DNA from: Devosia sp. XK-2
GTDB lineage: Bacteria > Pseudomonadota > Alphaproteobacteria > Rhizobiales > Devosiaceae
Length of the DNA: 64,000 nt
NCBI RefSeq assembly: GCF_037113415.1
Contig: NZ_CP146608.1
Span: 2,500,501-2,564,500 of the forward strand
Direction of reading: 5' to 3'
The notes beneath the pieces are model-generated. The model was not told the origin of the DNA. It ran no database searches and was given only the letters and a program-made list of their open reading frames with translations. The position numbers were made by a program, and so were the translations under genes. Shown one piece after another: positions 5,347-48,762 of this stretch; within the stretch, counting starts at the first letter, position 1, and each line of letters starts with the position of its first letter.

Positions 5347-6591
5347 TCAGGCGCTAATCTCGTTGAGCCTGCGTTGCAGCAATCTTCTCTCTGGTTCTTG
5401 TTGGCAGCGTTCCAGAGCGCGAACAAAAGCTCGGCGGGCATCTTCTCTTCGCCCAGCTGCCAAATAGAATTCAGCTGCTACTGAATGAGCCGGACCATAC
5501 TCGTCCAATTCGCCATCATGCATAACGTTTTCAAGCTCGGATAAGCCGGCGTCGATACCCTGCGCCTTGAAGATCGCCACCGAGCGGTTCAACCGAACCA
5601 CCGGAGAAGGCTCAGTCTGAAGCATGAGATCATATAGTCCAACGATTTCATGCCAATTGGTGGCTTCCGTACTCTCGGCTCTCGCATGTACCGCTGCGAT
5701 CGCTCCCTGGATCGTGTACGCACCGACTTCTCCCATTTCGAAGGCTCGTTCGATCAGTACATGACCCTCATCGATGAGCTCGCGGTCCCACGTACTTCTG
5801 TCCTGACCGGCCAGCAATACGATGTCTCCTGCCTTGTCTTGGCGTGACTGACGGCGAGATTCGTGTAGCAACATCATACCAAGCAGCCCCAACACATCTG
5901 CATCCGGGAGCATCTCCAAAAGCAAACGACCCAGCCGAATGGCCTGCGCGCAGAGATCGCTGCGGATATGAGCGAGGCCTGCATGTGCGGAATATCCTTC
6001 ATTGAACAGCAGGTAAATCACGCGGAGGACTGCATCCAGGCGCGCCGGCAGTTCTTCACGTGACGGCACTTCGTAAGGAAGTCCGGCCTGTTTAAGGCGA
6101 GCCTTGGCGCGCACGATACGTTGGGCAATTGTCGGCGTGCTTGTCAGGAATGCGCGACCAATCTCCTCAGTAGTCAGCCCACACACTTCTCGCAAAGTGA
6201 GTGCTATCTGCGCTTCCTTTGGCAGAAGCGGATGACAACACACAAAGATCATTCGCAGCTGGTCGTCTGCAAGGATAAGCTCTTCGTGCGGCATAACTTC
6301 TGTCTCCGGGTATAGCCTGAGAGTGATGTCATGGTGCGCGGCAGCAAAGCGCGCCTTGCGCCGCATCCGGTCGATGCTGCTGAACCGTCCCACGGATACC
6401 AGCCATGCCACGGGGTTTTGCGGCATTCCTTCGGCAGGCCAGCGCCGCGCTGCGGCCAGGAAAGCATCATGCAGCGCCTCCTCAGCCAGATCAAAGTCAC
6501 GCAATAACCGAACAAGTGTCGCGAGCACAGATCGAGAGTGGTTTCTCCATGCCGCGTCGACGGCGGCCATCTCACTCAAACCGCCATGCAT
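5347..6591 (-). CDS. ECF42-type RNA polymerase sigma factor with C-terminal extension
   Basis: A 414-residue protein. It has a sigma-70 region 2 (RDFDLAEEALHDAFLAAARR, PVAWLVSVGRF, IDRMRR) and region 4 HTH (LTLREVCGLTTEEIGRAFLT, then IAQRIVRAKARLK), followed by a long helical C-terminal domain (DUF6596, with the LFNEGYSA motif and TPR-like helices) typical of ECF42 factors. These factors lack a classical anti-sigma factor and are encoded with a DGPF/YCII protein, exactly as here. The ATG at 6591 overlaps the upstream stop (TAATG), which fits family length; the open frame extends to 6777 but overlaps the neighbour. Confidence 0.88.
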   Translation of the reverse strand: MHGGLSEMAAVDAAWRNHSRSVLATLVRLLRDFDLAEEALHDAFLAAARRWPAEGMPQNPVAWLVSVGRFSSIDRMRRKARFAAAHHDITLRLYPETEVMPHEELILADDQLRMIFVCCHPLLPKEAQIALTLREVCGLTTEEIGRAFLTSTPTIAQRIVRAKARLKQAGLPYEVPSREELPARLDAVLRVIYLLFNEGYSAHAGLAHIRSDLCAQAIRLGRLLLEMLPDADVLGLLGMMLLHESRRQSRQDKAGDIVLLAGQDRSTWDRELIDEGHVLIERAFEMGEVGAYTIQGAIAAVHARAESTEATNWHEIVGLYDLMLQTEPSPVVRLNRSVAIFKAQGIDAGLSELENVMHDGELDEYGPAHSVAAEFYLAAGRREDARRAFVRALERCQQEPERRLLQRRLNEISA

Positions 6592-6953
6592 TAGAGGTCT
6601 TGCCGTATCAATATGTCGAGCGGACGAACCTCCACGGACCCGACCGTTGCGAGCGGCATATGTGAAGCTAGTTGAATGGCCTCGTTCAGGTCTCGCGCTT
6701 CTACGATAAAGAAACCGCTGAGGTACTCCTTCGTCTCCATGAAAGGGCCGTCCGTTGTCGAGACGGTTCCATTCCATTTGCGAACCGTAATTGCTTCGGA
6801 CGGGCTTTTAAGGGGCTCGGACACTATGTAGTGCCCGCTCCGCGTCAGCTCCTCATCGTAGTCCAGCATTGCATTGCCGAAGCCAGAGCGCTGGCTCTCG
6901 GTCATGCCCGCGAACTTTGAGTCATCGAGATAAATTAGAAACATGTATCGCAC
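6591..6953 (-). CDS. DGPF/YCII-domain protein paired with the ECF sigma factor
   Basis: A 120-residue protein with the family hallmark TDGPFMETKEYLSGFFIVEA and N-terminal RYMFLIYLDD strand. DGPF-domain proteins regularly sit upstream of ECF42 sigma genes, and are thought to be their targets or partners. The one-base stop/start overlap indicates co-translation with the sigma factor. An imperfect inverted repeat at 6997-7035 lies in the promoter region. No enzymatic activity is established for the family. Confidence 0.85.
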   Translation of the reverse strand: MRYMFLIYLDDSKFAGMTESQRSGFGNAMLDYDEELTRSGHYIVSEPLKSPSEAITVRKWNGTVSTTDGPFMETKEYLSGFFIVEARDLNEAIQLASHMPLATVGSVEVRPLDILIRQDL

Positions 6954-41147: not shown

Positions 41148-43448
41148 CTAGACGTCCCGCAGACAGGGAAGCGTAGATTTCTGGATGATGGCATGTGCGC
41201 CAAAGTTGCCATCGGCCACTTGGGTAATGCCAAAATCGACAGCAAGTGACATTAATGCGAGAGCCTCGTCCTCGTTGAAGCCGTGTGTGTCGATCAAGAA
41301 GCGTCTGGCTTGGCGGAAGGCGTTCCGCAAAGCCAAGTCGACAGTGGATTTGCGATAGACTTCGGATTGGGCGCTTCGGCCCAGCTCGCGCAGATAATTG
41401 GGGTAGCTGAAGCTCTGGATAACCCAAGTATCGGGCGTTTCGATGAGTGGGCCTTTCAAGCCGCGGAGATGTTTGGGCTCTTGCTTGGCTTTATGCAGGT
41501 GAAACCGAAATTCGCCCGTCAGCGAGCACTCCAGCGCGGTTCCATTTATTTCCCCGTCAGCCTGAGCGAAGTGGCCATCGCCGACGGAAAAGAGGGCTCC
41601 TTCGACCGCAACGGGCAGATAGATGCGGGAGCCTTTGCCGGCCCGCCAATTGTCGATATTGCCGCCAAATGGACCGGGCGGAATTGTGTCGACCAGCTCG
41701 GCTTCGCGGGGCGCCACGCCCATGAAGCCGAAGTGCATTCGCGCCGGAACACGGACGGCATTGAGTGGGCCTTGCCGGTGTTCCACCGTTGTATGGTCTA
41801 CCGGGACGCCGGGATAGTCCATGGTGGCATGGACCACGCCATAAGGGTCCGTCTGTGGCGTCCAGCGATACGAGTAGAGCGGCGCGGCAATATCAGGGTG
41901 GTCGAGATCAATTTCGAAGATCGTAACGGTCTCGTGCTGATCGGCAAGGTCGAGCAGGTCGTTGTAGTGGTAGCCCCACCAGGCAGATGCGTTGGAAGCG
42001 AAGGCCTTGCCGCGATGGGCAGGGTTGCCGCTAGGTCGGGGGCGGATGTCGACGATCTCGACTTCCAGAATGTCTCCTGGCTCAGCGCCGCGGATATAGA
42101 CCGGCCCTGTGCAGATGTGGACGCCAAAGCCTTCGCCTGCCCCCCGGCCAAAAACGGATGCATCAATAGGACCGGCACCGCGCCGCTCGACAGATTTGCC
42201 TTCCGCCGTCCAGGCAAAGACGTTCTCCGCGCCAGGATCACCTGCGACCATACGGTCCCAGTCGTCAGCAGCATGCTGTGTCAGGGTTTCAATGGTGACG
42301 AGGTCGCCTGCATCAACGCGCAGGGCGGGTGGAAGGCTATGACTGAGATAACCCCAATGGACCGTCTGGGCGGTTGCCGGTAGATAATGCCGCTCAAGCG
42401 TGGGTGGATAATCGGGAGCCAAGGCGGCAGTCGCCGGTCCTCCCAGTCGCGGCGGGGCGTCTGGTGGCGCCACGAATTGAGATGGCTTGCCGCGCAGGCC
42501 ATAGGGGTGCGCGTCCGTTCCGCGTAGGCGCCGCATTTCGCTGGGCGTGGCGCCAAAGGCGGCCCCGAAGGCGCGGCTGAAATGGGCTTGGTCGCGGAAC
42601 CCCCAGCGCAATCCAATCGAGGCTATACTATCTCCGTCATGATCGGGATTGAGCAGATCCGTTCGACAGCGCAGCAACCGTTGCTGGCGGACATAGTCGG
42701 AGAAACTCTCTCCCCGTATTTCGAACAGGCGCTGCAGATAGCGGGTTGAAAGACCTTCATCACGGGCAATGCGGCTGGGATGGAGATCGGGGTCACTGAG
42801 GACACGATCAATAGCCGCGACAATACGGCGGAAGTGGCCGGCCTGCACGCTGCTGAGATCGCCTTCCGGTGCCCGGAGTTCGCCCAGCATGGCGCTGGCA
42901 AGAAGCTCGATCAGGGCGATCTCACCGGCGCTCGCATCGGGTTGTTCCAGGCTATCGAGATTGGTGACCAATGATCGCACCAGGGCGCGAGCGGCCTGCC
43001 CGGCGACTGTGCTGCCCAAAATGACTGGATAGTCTACGCGGCGTCGACCGAGCCGGGCCATGAGTGGCGCGGCGGGGAGCAGGATGAACATGGCTTCCCA
43101 ATCGTCGCGCCCATCGAGGCTGAAGCTGTGCCCGGCATCGATCACTACCAGATCCCCACTGGTGAGTTCGCGGGTGCCCGCTTCGGTCTGCAGGCTAAGT
43201 CGACCGCTGCGCGGTTGCAGGACAATTATGCGGCCGTTGGTTGGGACCGCATTGTCCAGCCGCTGCTTTTCGCCCGACAGGCTGGCGAAAATCGCGTCCG
43301 AGTTGGACCGAAACCAGTCAATCACGCCTGAGCCGGTGCTGGCGTCGGACGGCGCCAAAGCGATCTCTGAGAGGCGACTAGCCCATGCGCTCGATCGCTG
43401 ATCGAGCGGAATGTGATCAAAACTCATTGCCTGCCGCACAAGGTGCAT
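41148..43448 (-). CDS. AraC-type regulator fused to an acetamidase/formamidase domain
   Basis: One uninterrupted 766-residue frame. Residues 1-200 form an AraC cupin-like sensor region (RIIVLQPRSGRLSLQTEAGT, SGDLVVIDAGHSFSL). Residues 208-310 are a complete two-HTH AraC domain (IARDEGLSTRYLQRLFEIRG; IASIGLRWGFRDQAHFSRAF). After a Pro-rich linker (320-350), residues 352-766 are a full FmdA/AmdA domain (ATAQTVHWGYLSHSLPP, GVHICTGPVYIRGAEPGDIL, VDFGITQVADGNFGAHAI). The DNA-binding domain is therefore internal, which is unusual, and the enzyme domain may act as a second sensor. ATG 43427 is an alternative start. Divergent from a Tat-exported paralogue of its own C-terminal domain. Confidence 0.88.
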   Translation of the reverse strand: MHLVRQAMSFDHIPLDQRSSAWASRLSEIALAPSDASTGSGVIDWFRSNSDAIFASLSGEKQRLDNAVPTNGRIIVLQPRSGRLSLQTEAGTRELTSGDLVVIDAGHSFSLDGRDDWEAMFILLPAAPLMARLGRRRVDYPVILGSTVAGQAARALVRSLVTNLDSLEQPDASAGEIALIELLASAMLGELRAPEGDLSSVQAGHFRRIVAAIDRVLSDPDLHPSRIARDEGLSTRYLQRLFEIRGESFSDYVRQQRLLRCRTDLLNPDHDGDSIASIGLRWGFRDQAHFSRAFGAAFGATPSEMRRLRGTDAHPYGLRGKPSQFVAPPDAPPRLGGPATAALAPDYPPTLERHYLPATAQTVHWGYLSHSLPPALRVDAGDLVTIETLTQHAADDWDRMVAGDPGAENVFAWTAEGKSVERRGAGPIDASVFGRGAGEGFGVHICTGPVYIRGAEPGDILEVEIVDIRPRPSGNPAHRGKAFASNASAWWGYHYNDLLDLADQHETVTIFEIDLDHPDIAAPLYSYRWTPQTDPYGVVHATMDYPGVPVDHTTVEHRQGPLNAVRVPARMHFGFMGVAPREAELVDTIPPGPFGGNIDNWRAGKGSRIYLPVAVEGALFSVGDGHFAQADGEINGTALECSLTGEFRFHLHKAKQEPKHLRGLKGPLIETPDTWVIQSFSYPNYLRELGRSAQSEVYRKSTVDLALRNAFRQARRFLIDTHGFNEDEALALMSLAVDFGITQVADGNFGAHAIIQKSTLPCLRDV

Positions 43449-43734
43449 GGCCGGTCCTTTCGGTCCGTCAGGCCAACCAACAATGAGAGCTTCCCGGCTC
43501 GAACTGTACCTTATCCATCATTGTTCGGCACCGCTTGTCTCGAGACGTACAATCTCTTGTGTTTTGACCTGCACTGGAACGGTTGAGAGCGAGGTGATTT
43601 CGATTTAAATCATTGATAATAAACAATATATTCAGTTGATTTGGTCGAGTTGGGCATTTGGTGGGCGCTTGTGGAGCCATCGGGTCGTGGTCATCCTTGG
43701 GCACGTAAACACTTATCGGGAGACCAATCGAAAC
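43449..43734. promoter_or_regulatory. Divergent promoter region of the two amidase genes
   Basis: A 286-base gap with an AT-rich half (43600-43650, including GATTTAAATCATTGATAATA) in otherwise GC-rich DNA. Both the AraC-amidase gene and the exported amidase gene start at its ends, so promoters and AraC binding sites should lie here. I could not define individual sites. Confidence 0.55.
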
Positions 43735-45186
43735 ATGTGCAAGGGTGATGATGTTCACTGTCCGCAATTCCAGGAACACTACGAAGCGTTCCGGGGCGAT
43801 CTGAATTCGGAGCGGCGCAATTTTCTGCGCGGGGGGCTGTTCGCTGCCGGCGGAGTCGCGGCGCTTGGCGCCACTGGTGGTCTGTCGCTGGTGACACCCG
43901 CTTTGGCGCAGGCCAGTGCGGCGCGTCAGCCGGGTCAGCCGACCTATCACTATCTGCCTGCCAACGCCGATACTGTGCATTGGGGCTATTTCAGCAAGAC
44001 GCTGACACCGAAAGTCGAAGTGGAGTCTGGCGACTTCGTCACTATTGAAACTCTGACCCACCATGCGGGCGATGATCTGGAGCGTATGGTGCAGGGCGAT
44101 GAGGGCGCTGAAAGCGTCTATCTCTGGACCAAGGACAAGAAGGGCGTTGAGCGCCGCGGCGCCGGTTCAACCGATCCATCGGTCTATACCAAAGGGTCGG
44201 GTGAGGGGCAGGGCGTTCACATCATGACCGGCCCTGTCTATGTGCGGGGCGCCGAGCCAGGCGATGTGCTGGAAGTGCGCATTGTCGATTGCAAACCCAG
44301 GCCCTCTGCCAATCCAGAATTTGCCGGAAAAGCCTATGGCTCAAACGCCGCCGCCAATTGGGGCTTCCACTACAACGACATGCTGGGTGGCCAAAAGCGT
44401 GAGGTGATCACCATTTATGAGGTGGACACGAGCGGCGCCAAGAACTGGGCCGAGGCCGTCTATAGCTTCCCATGGGTTCCGCAGACCGACCCCTATGGCA
44501 TTGTCCACCAGACCATCGACTATCCCGGCGTGCCGGTTGACCACAGCCTGACGACGCGGAATTTCGACGTGCTCAAGGGTGTTCGTATGCCGATCCGTCC
44601 CCATTTCGGCACGCTTGGTCTGGCCCCCAAGGAGGCCGACTATGTCGATACCGTTCCACCCAGCTATACGGGTGGGAATATCGACAACTGGCGCATCGGC
44701 AACGGCGCAACCATGTACTACCCGGTGTCGGTGGAAGGGGCACTTCTGTCCGTCGGCGACCCGCATGCCAGCCAGGGCGACAGTGAATTGTGTGGTACGG
44801 CCATTGAGTGCTCTCTTACCGGCACGTTCCAGCTAATCCTGCACAAGAAGGCCGACCTCGGCGGGACGCCGCTCGAAGAGCTTAACTATCCGATGCTGGA
44901 AACCCAGACGGAGTGGCTGGTCCACGGCTTCTCATTCGCCAATTATCTCGATGAGCTCGGGCCCACGGCGCAAAGCGATATCTACGGCAAGTCGTCGGTC
45001 GATCTTGCCCTTCGCGACGCCTTCCGCAAGATGCGCCATTTTCTGATGACCACCAAGGATCTAACGGAAGATGAGGCGATCTCGCTGATGTCCATCGGCG
45101 TGGACTTCGGCATAACGCAGGTGGTGGACGGCAACTGGGGTGTCCATGCCATCGTCAAGAAGGACCTGTTCTCGGGTCGCTACTAG
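43735..45186 (+). CDS. Tat-exported acetamidase/formamidase-family enzyme
   Basis: A 483-residue protein. The N-terminus carries a twin-arginine signal: SERRNFLRGG (Arg27-Arg28), then a hydrophobic Gly/Ala-rich stretch and a likely cleavage at ALAQA. The mature protein is a complete FmdA/AmdA domain (NADTVHWGYFSKTLTPKVEV, GVHIMTGPVYVRGAEPGDVL, VDFGITQVVDGNWGVHAIVK). The family hydrolyses formamide, acetamide or related amides. Tat export implies folding, perhaps with metal, before export to the periplasm. The frame opens upstream to 43636, but only ATG 43735 gives a sensible signal peptide. It closely resembles the C-terminal half of the divergent AraC fusion. Confidence 0.88.
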   Translation: MCKGDDVHCPQFQEHYEAFRGDLNSERRNFLRGGLFAAGGVAALGATGGLSLVTPALAQASAARQPGQPTYHYLPANADTVHWGYFSKTLTPKVEVESGDFVTIETLTHHAGDDLERMVQGDEGAESVYLWTKDKKGVERRGAGSTDPSVYTKGSGEGQGVHIMTGPVYVRGAEPGDVLEVRIVDCKPRPSANPEFAGKAYGSNAAANWGFHYNDMLGGQKREVITIYEVDTSGAKNWAEAVYSFPWVPQTDPYGIVHQTIDYPGVPVDHSLTTRNFDVLKGVRMPIRPHFGTLGLAPKEADYVDTVPPSYTGGNIDNWRIGNGATMYYPVSVEGALLSVGDPHASQGDSELCGTAIECSLTGTFQLILHKKADLGGTPLEELNYPMLETQTEWLVHGFSFANYLDELGPTAQSDIYGKSSVDLALRDAFRKMRHFLMTTKDLTEDEAISLMSIGVDFGITQVVDGNWGVHAIVKKDLFSGRY

Positions 45187-45455: not shown

Positions 45456-46175
45456 CTAGCGGGATAAGTCACGAACCGGGCGAACGTGATCCTCGAACGG
45501 CACGTGTCGCCGCTGAAAAGTGGCGCCTTCGTCGACCGCCGGTCTGCTGATCCGATCCATTCGAAAATGACGGAAATCTTCGCGCGCAGGGTCCCAGGCC
45601 ACCAGATACCAGAGCGGTGGCAGGATCAGCATGGCGTGCGGTTCAACAACACGATTGGTTACGGCCCCTCTTGCGTCACGGTACTGGAAGCCCAGGTACT
45701 GCCGCTGGAGAAAAGCTGTCTCGAATGCGGGCAGCAGTGCGGGATCCATCGCCGCCAAATCCGATATGTCCACCAGCGGTGAAAGCCGTCCGACATAGAG
45801 GCAGTCCAGAAACCGGCGCAGGTCGCGTACCTTGTCCGGCGGCAGGGCCCTCTCGATCTTGGCAAGCCCCGCATCCGCGAGCCCCGCAAAGGGCAAATTC
45901 CCGGCGGCCCGCATTGATGCAACGCTGATGAGCAGCGCAAAGACCTCGGCGACCGAGAGCCGCGCCGTGGTCTGAACCGATTGCGGATCAAGTTGCACCC
46001 CGCCGCCGCGCCCCGGTTCGGAGTGAATGACAAAACCCTCATCGCGCAGCGCGCTGATGTCACGCAACACCGTGCGCCTGGACGCGCCAACCTCCCCCGC
46101 CAGGTCCGCGACTGTCGAAGTGCCGTTGCGGCGAAGGCTGCGCACGATGGCGTCTTGTCGGAGGCGAGCTGTCAT
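45456..46175 (-). CDS. YafY-type HTH/WYL regulator
   Basis: A 239-residue regulator: DeoR-like HTH (STVADLAGEVGASRRTVLRD) and a WYL domain (GFQYRDARGAVTNRVVEPHA, PLWYLVAWDPAREDFRHFRM, with the canonical W-Y-L triplet). Divergent from an epoxide-hydrolase-like gene; a near-perfect inverted repeat at 46194-46218 in the shared promoter region is its likely operator. Confidence 0.87.
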   Translation of the reverse strand: MTARLRQDAIVRSLRRNGTSTVADLAGEVGASRRTVLRDISALRDEGFVIHSEPGRGGGVQLDPQSVQTTARLSVAEVFALLISVASMRAAGNLPFAGLADAGLAKIERALPPDKVRDLRRFLDCLYVGRLSPLVDISDLAAMDPALLPAFETAFLQRQYLGFQYRDARGAVTNRVVEPHAMLILPPLWYLVAWDPAREDFRHFRMDRISRPAVDEGATFQRRHVPFEDHVRPVRDLSR

Positions 46176-46193
46176 TCGGCAACGCTGTCATTC

Positions 46194-46218
46194 AATGGTG
46201 TCAAAGTTTGGCACCATT
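46194..46218. promoter_or_regulatory. Operator between WYL regulator and hydrolase genes
   Basis: AATGGTGTC and GGCACCATT flank a 7-base centre; 8 of 9 positions pair. It sits midway between the two divergent start codons (46175 and 46263). Confidence 0.55.
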
Positions 46219-46262
46219 CGCCTTTAGGCAACCGCTGCACATGTTAGCAAGGCGAATTATCA

Positions 46263-47207
46263 ATGCTCAATACCGTCGACTTTCCCAAGCCCACCCTTAT
46301 CGCTGTCAATGGTGTAGAACTCGAGGTCTTCGAGGCAGGCAGAGAAAACAAAGGAAAGCCCATTGTGCTTTGTCACGGTTGGCCCGAGCATGCCTATTCT
46401 TGGCGCCATCAGGTACCCGCCCTTGTCGCTGCGGGCTACCACGTCATCGTTCCAAACCAGCGGGGCTATGGCAACTCGTCCCGCCCGGACGATGTGTCGG
46501 AGTATGATATTGAACACCTGACGGACGATCTCGTCGCACTTCTCGATCACTACGGATACCAGGATGCGACCTTTGTCGGCCATGACTGGGGCGCGGCGGT
46601 TGTCTGGGGGTTGACCCTGTTGCATCCCAGCCGGGTCAACAAAGTGATCAATCTGAGCCTGCCTTATCAGGAGCGAGGCGAAATGCCGTGGATCGAGTTC
46701 CTGGAGCTGATCCTGGGCAGCGACTACTACTTCGTTCACTTCAATCGGCAACCTGGCGTGGCGGACGCCGTACTGGACGAGAATGCGTTCCGCTTTCTTC
46801 GCAACCTTTACCGCAAGAACGTGCCCCTCCACGCGCCCGAGCCGGGCATGGTCATGATCAACCTAGCTAGAGCGGAAACGCCGCTCGGTGAGCCTGTGAT
46901 GAGCGATAGCGACTTGGCCGTTTACGTCTCGGCCTTTGAAAGATCCGGGTTCACAGGGGGCATCAACTGGTACCGCAACCTGGACCGCAACTGGCACCTA
47001 CTGGAGGACGTGGACCCCATCATCCATCAGCCTACGCTCATGATCTATGGCGACCGGGATGTGATTCCGAAATCTGAAAAACTGGCGGATTTCGTGCCCA
47101 ATGTGGACGTGGTCAGCCTCGATTGCGGCCATTGGATCCAGGAAGAAAAGCCGGAGGAAACCAACCTGGCAATCATTGACTGGCTGGCACGGAAGAGCGC
47201 CACCTGA
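46263..47207 (+). CDS. Alpha/beta hydrolase, epoxide-hydrolase-like
   Basis: A 314-residue alpha/beta hydrolase. Oxyanion motif HGWPEHAYSWRHQV, nucleophile elbow FVGHDWGAAVVWGL (Asp nucleophile, as in epoxide hydrolases and dehalogenases), acid Asp in MIYGDRDVIPK, and catalytic His in LDCGHWIQEEKPE. Cap-domain Tyr residues (SDYYFVHFNR; GINWYRNLDR) match the epoxide-opening Tyr pair, favouring epoxide hydrolase over dehalogenase. Divergent from the WYL regulator that probably controls it. Physiological substrate unknown. Confidence 0.87.
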   Translation: MLNTVDFPKPTLIAVNGVELEVFEAGRENKGKPIVLCHGWPEHAYSWRHQVPALVAAGYHVIVPNQRGYGNSSRPDDVSEYDIEHLTDDLVALLDHYGYQDATFVGHDWGAAVVWGLTLLHPSRVNKVINLSLPYQERGEMPWIEFLELILGSDYYFVHFNRQPGVADAVLDENAFRFLRNLYRKNVPLHAPEPGMVMINLARAETPLGEPVMSDSDLAVYVSAFERSGFTGGINWYRNLDRNWHLLEDVDPIIHQPTLMIYGDRDVIPKSEKLADFVPNVDVVSLDCGHWIQEEKPEETNLAIIDWLARKSAT

Positions 47208-47422: not shown

Positions 47423-48115
47423 TCAGCCGACCAGCCAGCGAAATACGCGCTTCAGAAACGCCTGACCGTCTGTGTGGATCAGGGGGCCATGGGCCATGAT
47501 GACTTGCTTTGTGGGCCAGGCGAGAACCTGCGCGAGGGCGGCTCGGGCGGCGGGCCTGTTTGTGAAGGCGGCCTGGAACTTTCTTGGTACTTCCGGTTGT
47601 TCGGCCGTCATCAGGTCCAGACGGGCAACGAGTGCGCGCCAGCCTGTGAACCATCCGGGCGGCAATTGCTGAATGAGATCGGTGAAAATCGTCGTGCCGC
47701 TATCGCGATGAAACAACACCACCTCGCTGATGATCCGGTTGCCCCAGATGATCGCGTGGTCGATCTCCCCTGCCCATGCCGCGATCTGGGCATCGCCAAA
47801 ATCGGTGTCGAACCTGATGTCCTGGCGCGTCTCGCGAAGGCCGGGTGGCGCATAGACCTTTGCGTCGGGATAGGAGCGCTGCCATTCCCCCAGAAATGTG
47901 TGGTGGAGGGAATTGGGCGGGACCAGATGGCGCACCGTCCCCAAATTCTCGATGCTGGTGCGCAGGTCGTCAGTGAGCGCTGTGGGCGACCACAGGACCA
48001 GATCGCCACCGACCAGACGGATGACTGCCATGCGTGTGGGATAGCGAAATCCGGCCGCTGCCGTGACCACAGGCCCGTCCACCGTCCAGATATTGGGTCC
48101 AAATTCCTTCAGCAA
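47423..48115 (-). CDS. DUF4336 protein (metallo-beta-lactamase-like fold)
   Basis: About 230 residues of the DUF4336 family: KEFGPNIWTVDGPVVTA, RMAVIRLVGGDLVLWSPTAL, the VRHLVPPNSLHHTFLGEW segment in place of the usual HxHxDH metal motif, and VIMAHGPLIHTDGQAFLKRV near the end. The fold resembles metallo-beta-lactamases, but metal ligands are only partly conserved. I prefer TTG 48115 as start because GGAGGG lies six bases upstream; the frame continues to 48175, across the operator. Divergent from a TetR gene that probably represses it. Confidence 0.78.
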   Translation of the reverse strand: MLKEFGPNIWTVDGPVVTAAAGFRYPTRMAVIRLVGGDLVLWSPTALTDDLRTSIENLGTVRHLVPPNSLHHTFLGEWQRSYPDAKVYAPPGLRETRQDIRFDTDFGDAQIAAWAGEIDHAIIWGNRIISEVVLFHRDSGTTIFTDLIQQLPPGWFTGWRALVARLDLMTAEQPEVPRKFQAAFTNRPAARAALAQVLAWPTKQVIMAHGPLIHTDGQAFLKRVFRWLVG

Positions 48116-48132
48116 CGCACGCCCTCCACTAT

Positions 48133-48150
48133 ATTTACACGCGTGTAAAT
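48133..48150. promoter_or_regulatory. TetR operator between DUF4336 and TetR genes
   Basis: Perfect 18-base palindrome ATTTACACGCGTGTAAAT. A looser second copy (TATACAACAATGTAAA, about 48152-48167) lies beside it, next to the TetR start. Perfect symmetry and position between divergent genes strongly suggest an autoregulatory site. Confidence 0.75.
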
Positions 48151-48168
48151 TTATACAACAATGTAAAA

Positions 48169-48762
48169 ATGACAATGCCCAAGCGAACCGACAGATCCCG
48201 CGCGCTCATTCTCCAGGCGGCCGATGCGGCATTTCGGGAATTTGGATTTGCCGAAAGCACAATGGAGGACATCGCGAACCGCGCAGGCCTGACCCGCAAG
48301 ACGGTCTACAACCTGTTCGCCTCCAAGGAGGACATTGCCCTCCAGCTCATCGCTCTCGTGGAAGCCAATGACGCGCCCTATCGCAACCGTATGGACGCCG
48401 GAGAGGACGCGCTGGCTCTGCTCGAAGATGTTTTTCTCGACAGCGCGCAATGGTGTCTAGCCAATGCGGCCCTGGCCAGACTGGCCCTCGCACCCGCCGA
48501 ACGGCCAACGCTTGAACCGCCTGCCGACCGGCCATCCTTTCAGCGGCTGATCAGGGATATTCTGCTGCTTGGCCAGAAACAGGGTCGCATCCGTATGGAT
48601 GATGACGCCAATTTCATGGCTTTGGTGCTGCTTGGAATTTACGGGCAAGCGATGCTGACGGTGCTCGCGGGACGGCCGTTCAACCACGCCGAGATCAAAC
48701 ATACCGTTCGTATCGTTATCGAGGGCATTGGCCGGCGACCCGCGCCGTCTGCATCGGCCTGA
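48169..48762 (+). CDS. TetR-family regulator
   Basis: A 197-residue regulator with HTH motifs ILQAADAAFREFGFAESTME and NRAGLTRKTVYNLFASKEDI, and a helical C-terminal domain with a TetR_C_7/AefR-like tail (FMALVLLGIYGQAMLTVLAG). Starts at ATG 48169 or ATG 48175; divergent from DUF4336, with an 18-base palindrome between. Likely controls itself and the DUF4336 gene. Confidence 0.87.
   Translation: MTMPKRTDRSRALILQAADAAFREFGFAESTMEDIANRAGLTRKTVYNLFASKEDIALQLIALVEANDAPYRNRMDAGEDALALLEDVFLDSAQWCLANAALARLALAPAERPTLEPPADRPSFQRLIRDILLLGQKQGRIRMDDDANFMALVLLGIYGQAMLTVLAGRPFNHAEIKHTVRIVIEGIGRRPAPSASA

What the first reader, a model, noticed from the sequence alone, without database searches (positions are those of the whole stretch)
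41148..45186. AraC regulator fused to a whole amidase domain, divergent from a Tat-exported paralogue of that domain
One frame encodes sensor, DNA-binding and complete acetamidase/formamidase domains; the neighbouring gene, transcribed the other way, encodes the same enzyme family with a twin-arginine signal. The two amidase domains are similar along their whole length. AraC HTH domains are usually C-terminal, so an internal one followed by a full enzyme domain is unusual. A reasonable model: the fused domain binds or slowly hydrolyses the amide in the cytoplasm and so gates expression of the periplasmic enzyme. This could be a one-component 'enzyme as sensor' circuit.
Basis: partly seen in the sequence, partly recalled or inferred. 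Interest (0 to 1): 0.78.

Follow-up and report, generated by a model that had tools for sequence, protein, structure and literature searches.

The report
Amidase-tailed AraC regulator with recurring operator
One protein joins a gene switch to a full amide-cutting enzyme domain; its relatives in many bacteria usually sit beside genes for taking up or cutting amides, often with a similar DNA site in front, so it probably senses amides and switches those genes.

Summary
In detail: 41148-43448(-) encodes AraC sensor, AraC HTH, linker and a complete FmdA domain; 43735-45186(+) encodes a Tat-type FmdA, 58% identical. It is no accident. Among 99 distinct fused loci from alpha-, beta- and gammaproteobacteria, 82 carry an FmdA paralogue and 11 others a TRAP transporter plus gamma-glutamyltransferase; the fused FmdA domains form one clade. 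Only 29 are divergent from FmdA as here; 51 follow an FmdA in the same direction, mostly without Tat signal. A recurring operator-like site (window 43544-43564) precedes the target genes: with a matrix that left the window out, the best site of the locus lies there in the window, 11 of 11 TRAP/GGT and 26 of 33 alpha operon loci, but only 3 of 7 and 7 of 18 beta/gamma loci; none before 16 FmdA genes lacking a fusion. Fused domains changed a His, invariant in 91 unfused ones, to Gln (95 of 99). Best reading: an amide-responsive one-component regulator with a captured amidase as receptor. Control of the neighbour is well supported; FmdA as sensor is inferred. My library searches found no paper on it.

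The parts
41148..43448 (-). AraC-FmdA fusion gene, 766 aa (alternative start at 43427)
   Evidence: fold model mean pLDDT 86
42873..43448 (-). N-terminal AraC sensor/dimerisation barrel, aa 1-192
42516..42851 (-). AraC-type double HTH, aa 200-311
42393..42515 (-). linker aa 312-352, mostly disordered in the model
   Evidence: pLDDT under 50 at 311-346; 19.7% mean identity among nonredundant fused proteins
41163..42392 (-). C-terminal FmdA domain, aa 353-762
42276..42278 (-). codon of Gln391; His in all 91 unfused relatives compared
43449..43734 (.). divergent promoter region
   Evidence: between the two start codons
43544..43564 (+). operator-like site GACGTACAATCTCTTGTGTTT
   Evidence: best hit of the whole 64 kb with a matrix from which the window site was left out, 15.3 against 13.5 for the next; scores of 16-17 also occur by chance in 2 of 16 control loci of 14 kb
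43735..45186 (+). Tat-type FmdA (acetamidase/formamidase family) gene, 483 aa

Best explanation
The 766-aa protein is a cytoplasmic one-component transcription regulator of the AraC family. It binds a recurring site (about 21 bp, GCGCACAA-N4-CTTGtC) in the divergent promoter and controls the neighbouring exported amidase gene, perhaps also its own. Its C-terminal FmdA domain, captured once from a stand-alone FmdA subfamily, serves as receptor for the amide (or its product); the variable AraC barrel mainly dimerises. Shown here: domain anatomy, single origin of the fusion, conserved linkage to amide genes, and a site that recurs before those genes in three arrangements. Inferred: that this protein binds that site, that it activates rather than represses, that FmdA is the sensor, and that His-to-Gln lowers turnover. 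The amide is not identified.
For: Linkage: FmdA paralogue in 82 of 99 loci, immediate neighbour by my gene calls in 75; TRAP + GGT in 11 more. One origin: 45 of 45 fused domains in the tree are one clade, 100/97. Operator: motif ACAA-N4-TTG upstream of the fusion in 19 of 29 divergent loci, from which it was read by eye (shuffles 0.9), and in 10 of 11 TRAP/GGT loci not yet looked at (0.55); matrix from 13 divergent alpha sites, window left out: window 1 of 1, TRAP/GGT 11 of 11, alpha operons 26 of 33, divergent beta/gamma 3 of 7, beta/gamma operons 7 of 18; upstream of 16 FmdA genes without a fusion the best score is 7.1 bits. FmdA is the slowest-changing part of the fusion (63.9% mean identity; HTH 50.3, barrel 25.6). 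Q391 in 95 of 99 fused domains against H in 91 of 91 unfused.
Against: Binding is not demonstrated. Among nonredundant loci the operator test is weaker: alpha operons 3 of 8, beta/gamma operons 1 of 6 (p 0.26); two of the seven beta/gamma operon hits are weak (7.7 and 11.8 bits), and two of the three divergent beta/gamma hits (L106, L197) look like near-copies. Four divergent Burkholderiaceae loci (L161, L165, L168, L196) have no good site in the promoter. Orientation is not constant: the site reads against the operon in 34 of 34 co-directional hits but towards the target in most divergent alpha loci. The barrel is predicted well folded and could be the sensor. Strong conservation of FmdA fits an active enzyme too. 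4 of 99 fused domains keep His, the probable earliest branch L171 among them (78/68). The distant member 2f4l seems to have Ala there (low-scoring alignment), so this His need not be catalytic.
Confidence: 0.6

Rival explanations
1. Bifunctional protein: the AraC barrel senses a ligand and the FmdA domain is an ordinary active amidase, fused for co-expression. It regulates the same neighbours, but the enzyme does not sense.
For: Polar residues conserved at 98% or more in both sets (E387, H392, D395, H444, D599, D624, H626, D631, E633 and others); FmdA more conserved than the regulator part; 11 TRAP/GGT loci have no FmdA partner in the locus, so the fused copy could be their enzyme.
Against: 95 of 99 fused domains changed a His that 91 of 91 unfused ones keep; 24 columns conserved at 98% in unfused domains fall below 95% in fused ones; fused domains are less alike than their partners over the same 29 loci (63.5 against 71.4%; lower in 360 of 406 pairs); most loci already have an enzyme beside it.
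Confidence: 0.27
2. The fused FmdA domain forms mixed oligomers with the unfused FmdA enzyme, which thereby reports its own state to the regulator.
For: Paralogue adjacent in 75 of 99 loci and 58% identical here.
Against: Here the partner looks exported while the regulator must be cytoplasmic; 11 of 99 loci have TRAP/GGT and no partner in the locus, and one such genome, G150, has no second match at E 1e-60.
Confidence: 0.08
3. Chance fusion, sequencing error or decaying gene with no special function.
For: Only 1 of 75 genomes of the genus holds it.
Against: Fusions in 19 of 397 genomes of the order and in three classes and more; coding pattern intact.
Confidence: 0.01

Closest known systems
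FeaR-type AraC/XylS regulators (NF007243, PF14525)
   Same: Barrel plus HTH match FeaR's profile over 76-307 at 132.5 bits
   Different: Below the FeaR cut-off of 199; the FeaR profile (303 positions) ends after the HTH, here an FmdA domain of about 400 residues follows
3b9t, Tat-type acetamidase/formamidase of Methylobacillus flagellatus
   Different: Stand-alone, named as a twin-arginine signal protein, no DNA-binding part
Ada (AraC-type HTH followed by a methyltransferase; recalled)
   Same: AraC-type HTH with an enzyme-fold domain C-terminal to it
   Different: Another enzyme and another N-terminal domain; no sequence test made
Rob (MarA-like HTH with C-terminal effector domain)
   Same: Effector-binding domain C-terminal to the AraC HTH (abstract of PMC8279559 in a listing)
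   Different: No sensor barrel before the HTH, and the effector domain is not FmdA (recalled)
fmdCABDEF of Methylophilus methylotrophus (passages of PMC10781810)
   Same: Formamidase with amide transporter and a putative regulator, induced by formamide and urea
   Different: No AraC-FmdA fusion in the passages seen ('AraC' occurs 0 times in that text)

Membership tests
AraC/XylS regulators | double HTH domain of AraC type | tested here: met
   PF12833 72.3 bits, positions 1-79 of 80; folds of MarA, SoxS, AraC
AraC/XylS regulators | binds a site by its target gene | tested here: inconclusive
   recurring site found; binding itself not testable
FmdA_AmdA family PF03069 | profile score over cut-off | tested here: met
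   113.1 (fusion) and 109.1 bits (neighbour), cut-off 27
FmdA_AmdA family PF03069 | fold of solved members | tested here: met
FmdA_AmdA family PF03069 | amidase activity | not testable with these tools
   needs an assay; Q391 in place of a His kept in 91 of 91 unfused domains
Canonical formamidase NF045496 | score over 500 | tested here: not met
   68.0 and 67.1 bits
FeaR NF007243 | score over 199 | tested here: not met
   132.5 bits
Tat substrate (43735-45186) | twin-arginine motif before a hydrophobic stretch | tested here: met
   ERRNFLRGG then hydrophobic run to ALAQA
Tat substrate (43735-45186) | TIGR01409 profile over cut-off 16.7 | tested here: not met
   12.7 bits
Ada-like regulator-enzyme | C-terminal domain catalyses a reaction that changes DNA binding | not testable with these tools
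   needs biochemistry

The most novel reading that the evidence does not exclude
A widespread, undescribed class of one-component regulators in which a whole amidase was captured once, turned into an amide receptor with a His-to-Gln change, and kept one operator while its target module was exchanged: exported FmdA, ABC transporter + cytoplasmic FmdA + RidA, or TRAP transporter + gamma-glutamyltransferase.
Probability: 0.5. Interest if true: 0.75.

Novelty: new variant of a known kind. Interest (0 to 1): 0.62.

Why it matters
It would be a clear case of an enzyme recruited whole as the sensor of genes for its own kind of chemistry, with three natural target modules and one site, so that the step from catalyst to receptor can be placed on a tree and tested by single changes. 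It gives a handle on the unknown substrates of the Tat-type FmdA subfamily, and possibly an amide biosensor. Public records name such proteins either 'AraC family transcriptional regulator' or 'acetamidase/formamidase family protein', so the double nature is easily missed.

Tried and rejected
Genus survey: only the window's genome has the fusion (1 of 75); read as an accessory module. The neighbouring WYL regulator and alpha/beta hydrolase are adjacent in 8 of 8 congener stretches read, without the two amidase genes in those stretches, two of which end about 0.3 kb past the hydrolase at a contig end. GC content of the module does not differ from its flanks (0.598 against 0.600 and 0.597), so composition gives no sign of recent arrival.

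First domain tree was spoiled by outgroup rows that were apparently read in wrong frames or lay on very long branches; L001, L007, L008, L013, L014, L015 were dropped. In one search the fused group needed two changes, four of those rows falling inside it.

Regulon in the own genome: pattern CGNACAANNNNTTGNC with up to 1 mismatch gave 362 hits against 239 for the reversed control: too loose to name further targets.

Motif directly before the fusion in co-directional loci: 0 of 51; also 0 of 6 loci without FmdA and 0 of 2 with FmdA downstream. In co-directional loci the sites lie before the first gene of the operon instead. In 5 Burkholderiaceae loci (L156, L157, L158, L163, L164) strong sites lie before or at the called start of a second operon and near FmdA; they count as misses.

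The first matrix holds one poor training site (8.2 bits). One of 50 column-permuted matrices reached 17 of 51 co-directional loci, against 34 for the real one. In control loci without a fusion, scores up to 17.0 occur away from FmdA (L118; L114 16.0).

Link between His391 and lack of a same-subfamily partner: 3 of 26 against 1 of 73, p 0.054, and two of the three are sister lineages: not claimed.

Literature: ten searches showed no paper on this fusion. Listings were complete for 13 and 14 (0 papers), 31 (2), 35 (5) and 66 (9); capped for (20 of 161; 10 of 5,597; 8 of 982; 25 of 363; 12 of 47). Passages read: PMC10781810, PMC10138600, PMC11573777 (an AraC gene upstream of amiD, an amidase of another family), PMC13296017. 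The library lacks most subscription journals.

No atomic coordinates came with the fold model, so the place of residues 391 and 611 relative to the active site could not be measured. The second structure job was not used.
Full report

How widespread. Fusions with a match across HTH and FmdA: 1 of 75 genomes of the genus, 19 of 397 of the order, 4 of 385 of the class, 8 of 398 of the phylum, the window's own genome counted in each and the samples overlapping. With those and earlier loci I mapped 105; 6 on contigs already held were dropped, leaving 99. Of the 74 kept named loci, 44 are alpha-, 23 beta-, 4 gammaproteobacteria, 1 Hydrogenophilia, 2 unplaced. In plasmids, 10 of 72,556 records hold one place that covers at least 80% of the query.

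Neighbours. By my own gene calls: 29 of 99 divergent from an FmdA gene as in the window; 51 co-directional after an FmdA gene; 2 before one; 11 divergent from TRAP genes and gamma-glutamyltransferase (families checked on one locus, the rest by clustering); 6 without, one of them a 3-kb contig. Tat pattern RR.F[LIMV]: 25 of 29 divergent partners, 6 of 51 co-directional ones. The commonest operon is SBP_bac_3, amino-acid ABC permease/ATPase, FmdA, fusion, often RidA (the same order in two annotated records). Single loci add nitrile hydratase (L151) or a PF04199 cyclase (L161). The common theme is uptake and hydrolysis of amides or related compounds.

One origin. In a tree of 76 FmdA domains (fused and unfused thinned to under 85% identity, 5 further outgroup rows added), the 45 fused ones are one clade (100/97, in all of 200 bootstrap trees). 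Mean identity among 42 nonredundant fused proteins: barrel 25.6, HTH 50.3, linker 19.7, FmdA 63.9%. Over the same 29 loci fused FmdA is less alike than the partner FmdA (63.5 against 71.4%).

Active-site letters. 99 fused and 91 unfused domains were compared; 8 of 99 unfused sequences, shorter than 341 residues and mostly from a short subfamily, were dropped. Of 93 columns conserved at 98% or more in unfused domains, 55 are so in fused ones too, among them the GGNxD and GDxHxxx[GA]DxE stretches that the distant acetamidase 2ii1 shares; 24 fall below 95% in fused domains. Only two columns are mostly (over 85%) one letter in fused and another in unfused domains: Q391 (95 of 99 fused) against H (91 of 91), and L611 (99 of 99) against Y (86 of 91). 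At the second, 2ii1 and 2f4l have L (alignments), so that change belongs to the unfused branch; the first looks like a change in the fused line, because unfused domains, the distant L105 FmdA among them, have His. 2f4l seems to have Ala there in a low-scoring alignment, so the His is not universal in PF03069. L171, which branches first among the fused with modest support (78/68), still has His. The window's own fused domain also departs from the family at G630A (98% Gly), next to conserved D631. What residue 391 does is not known.

Operator. Reading the divergent promoters side by side showed a repeated ACAA-N4-TTG motif: 19 of 29 of those loci, and 10 of 11 TRAP/GGT loci not used to find it, against 0.9 and 0.55 in dinucleotide shuffles. 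A first matrix from 22 sites gave 15.5 bits or more in 23 of 29 divergent and 17.3 or more in 11 of 11 TRAP/GGT promoters, both in its training set, and at most 7.1 upstream of 16 FmdA genes without a fusion, though up to 17.0 elsewhere in those control loci. For the co-directional loci, not in training, the best hit of the whole locus fell in the operon-upstream window in 34 of 51 (2.5 expected by length; 50 column-permuted matrices mean 3.6, highest 17). A cleaner test with 13 sites from divergent alpha loci, window left out: window 1 of 1; TRAP/GGT 11 of 11 (nonredundant 3 of 3); alpha operons 26 of 33 (3 of 8); divergent beta/gamma 3 of 7; beta/gamma operons 7 of 18 (nonredundant 1 of 6, p 0.26). 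So the site is strong in alphaproteobacteria, patchy elsewhere, and near-copies inflate the full counts. Its orientation varies: towards the target in most divergent alpha loci, against the operon in 34 of 34 co-directional hits; the core ACAA-N4-TTGt is nearly palindromic. In the window it is 43544-43564, the best of 64 kb with the window site left out (15.3 against 13.5).

Mechanism. I read it as an AraC-type one-component regulator of the adjacent amide module. Regulation of the neighbour rests on linkage plus the recurring site; binding is not shown. That FmdA is the sensor is inferred from its conservation, from the His-to-Gln change and from its place beside an enzyme of the same family; the rival of an active second enzyme stays open at about one in four. 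Activation rather than repression is a guess from AraC habits (recalled).

Novelty. Domains after an AraC HTH are known (Rob, listing; Ada, recalled), so this is a new variant of a known kind. Ten library searches, five of them seen only as capped listings, showed no paper on an AraC-FmdA fusion (numbers under Tried and rejected); the library lacks most subscription journals.

Noticed in passing
window 43735-43830: Alpha Tat-type FmdA proteins share a long n-region before the twin arginine (MC.GD...CP.F..H), and beta/gamma ones have another Cys/His-bearing stretch there; possibly a metal or chaperone site.
   Followed up: no
L151 4916-5912: Nitrile hydratase alpha and beta (N-terminal part) genes and a branched-chain-type ABC transporter permease upstream of the fusion in Pseudomonas typographi.
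   Followed up: partly
L085, L088, L089, L091 and 7 others: Fusion divergent from TRAP transporter genes and gamma-glutamyltransferase with the same operator-like site; substrate unknown.
   Followed up: partly
L156, L157, L158, L163, L164: In Burkholderiaceae a strong site lies before a c19-SBP-ABC operon downstream of the fusion; c19 (302 aa) has no Pfam match at 1e-6.
   Followed up: no
window 45456-47207: WYL regulator and divergent alpha/beta hydrolase are adjacent in 8 of 8 congener stretches read; the amide genes are an extra beside them here.
   Followed up: yes
window 5418-5438: Second-best site of the leave-window-out matrix scan (13.5 bits), within the span of ORF 5347-6777(-); may be chance.
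   Followed up: no
window 47423-48175: DUF4336 protein (55.5 bits) of unknown role near the module.
   Followed up: no
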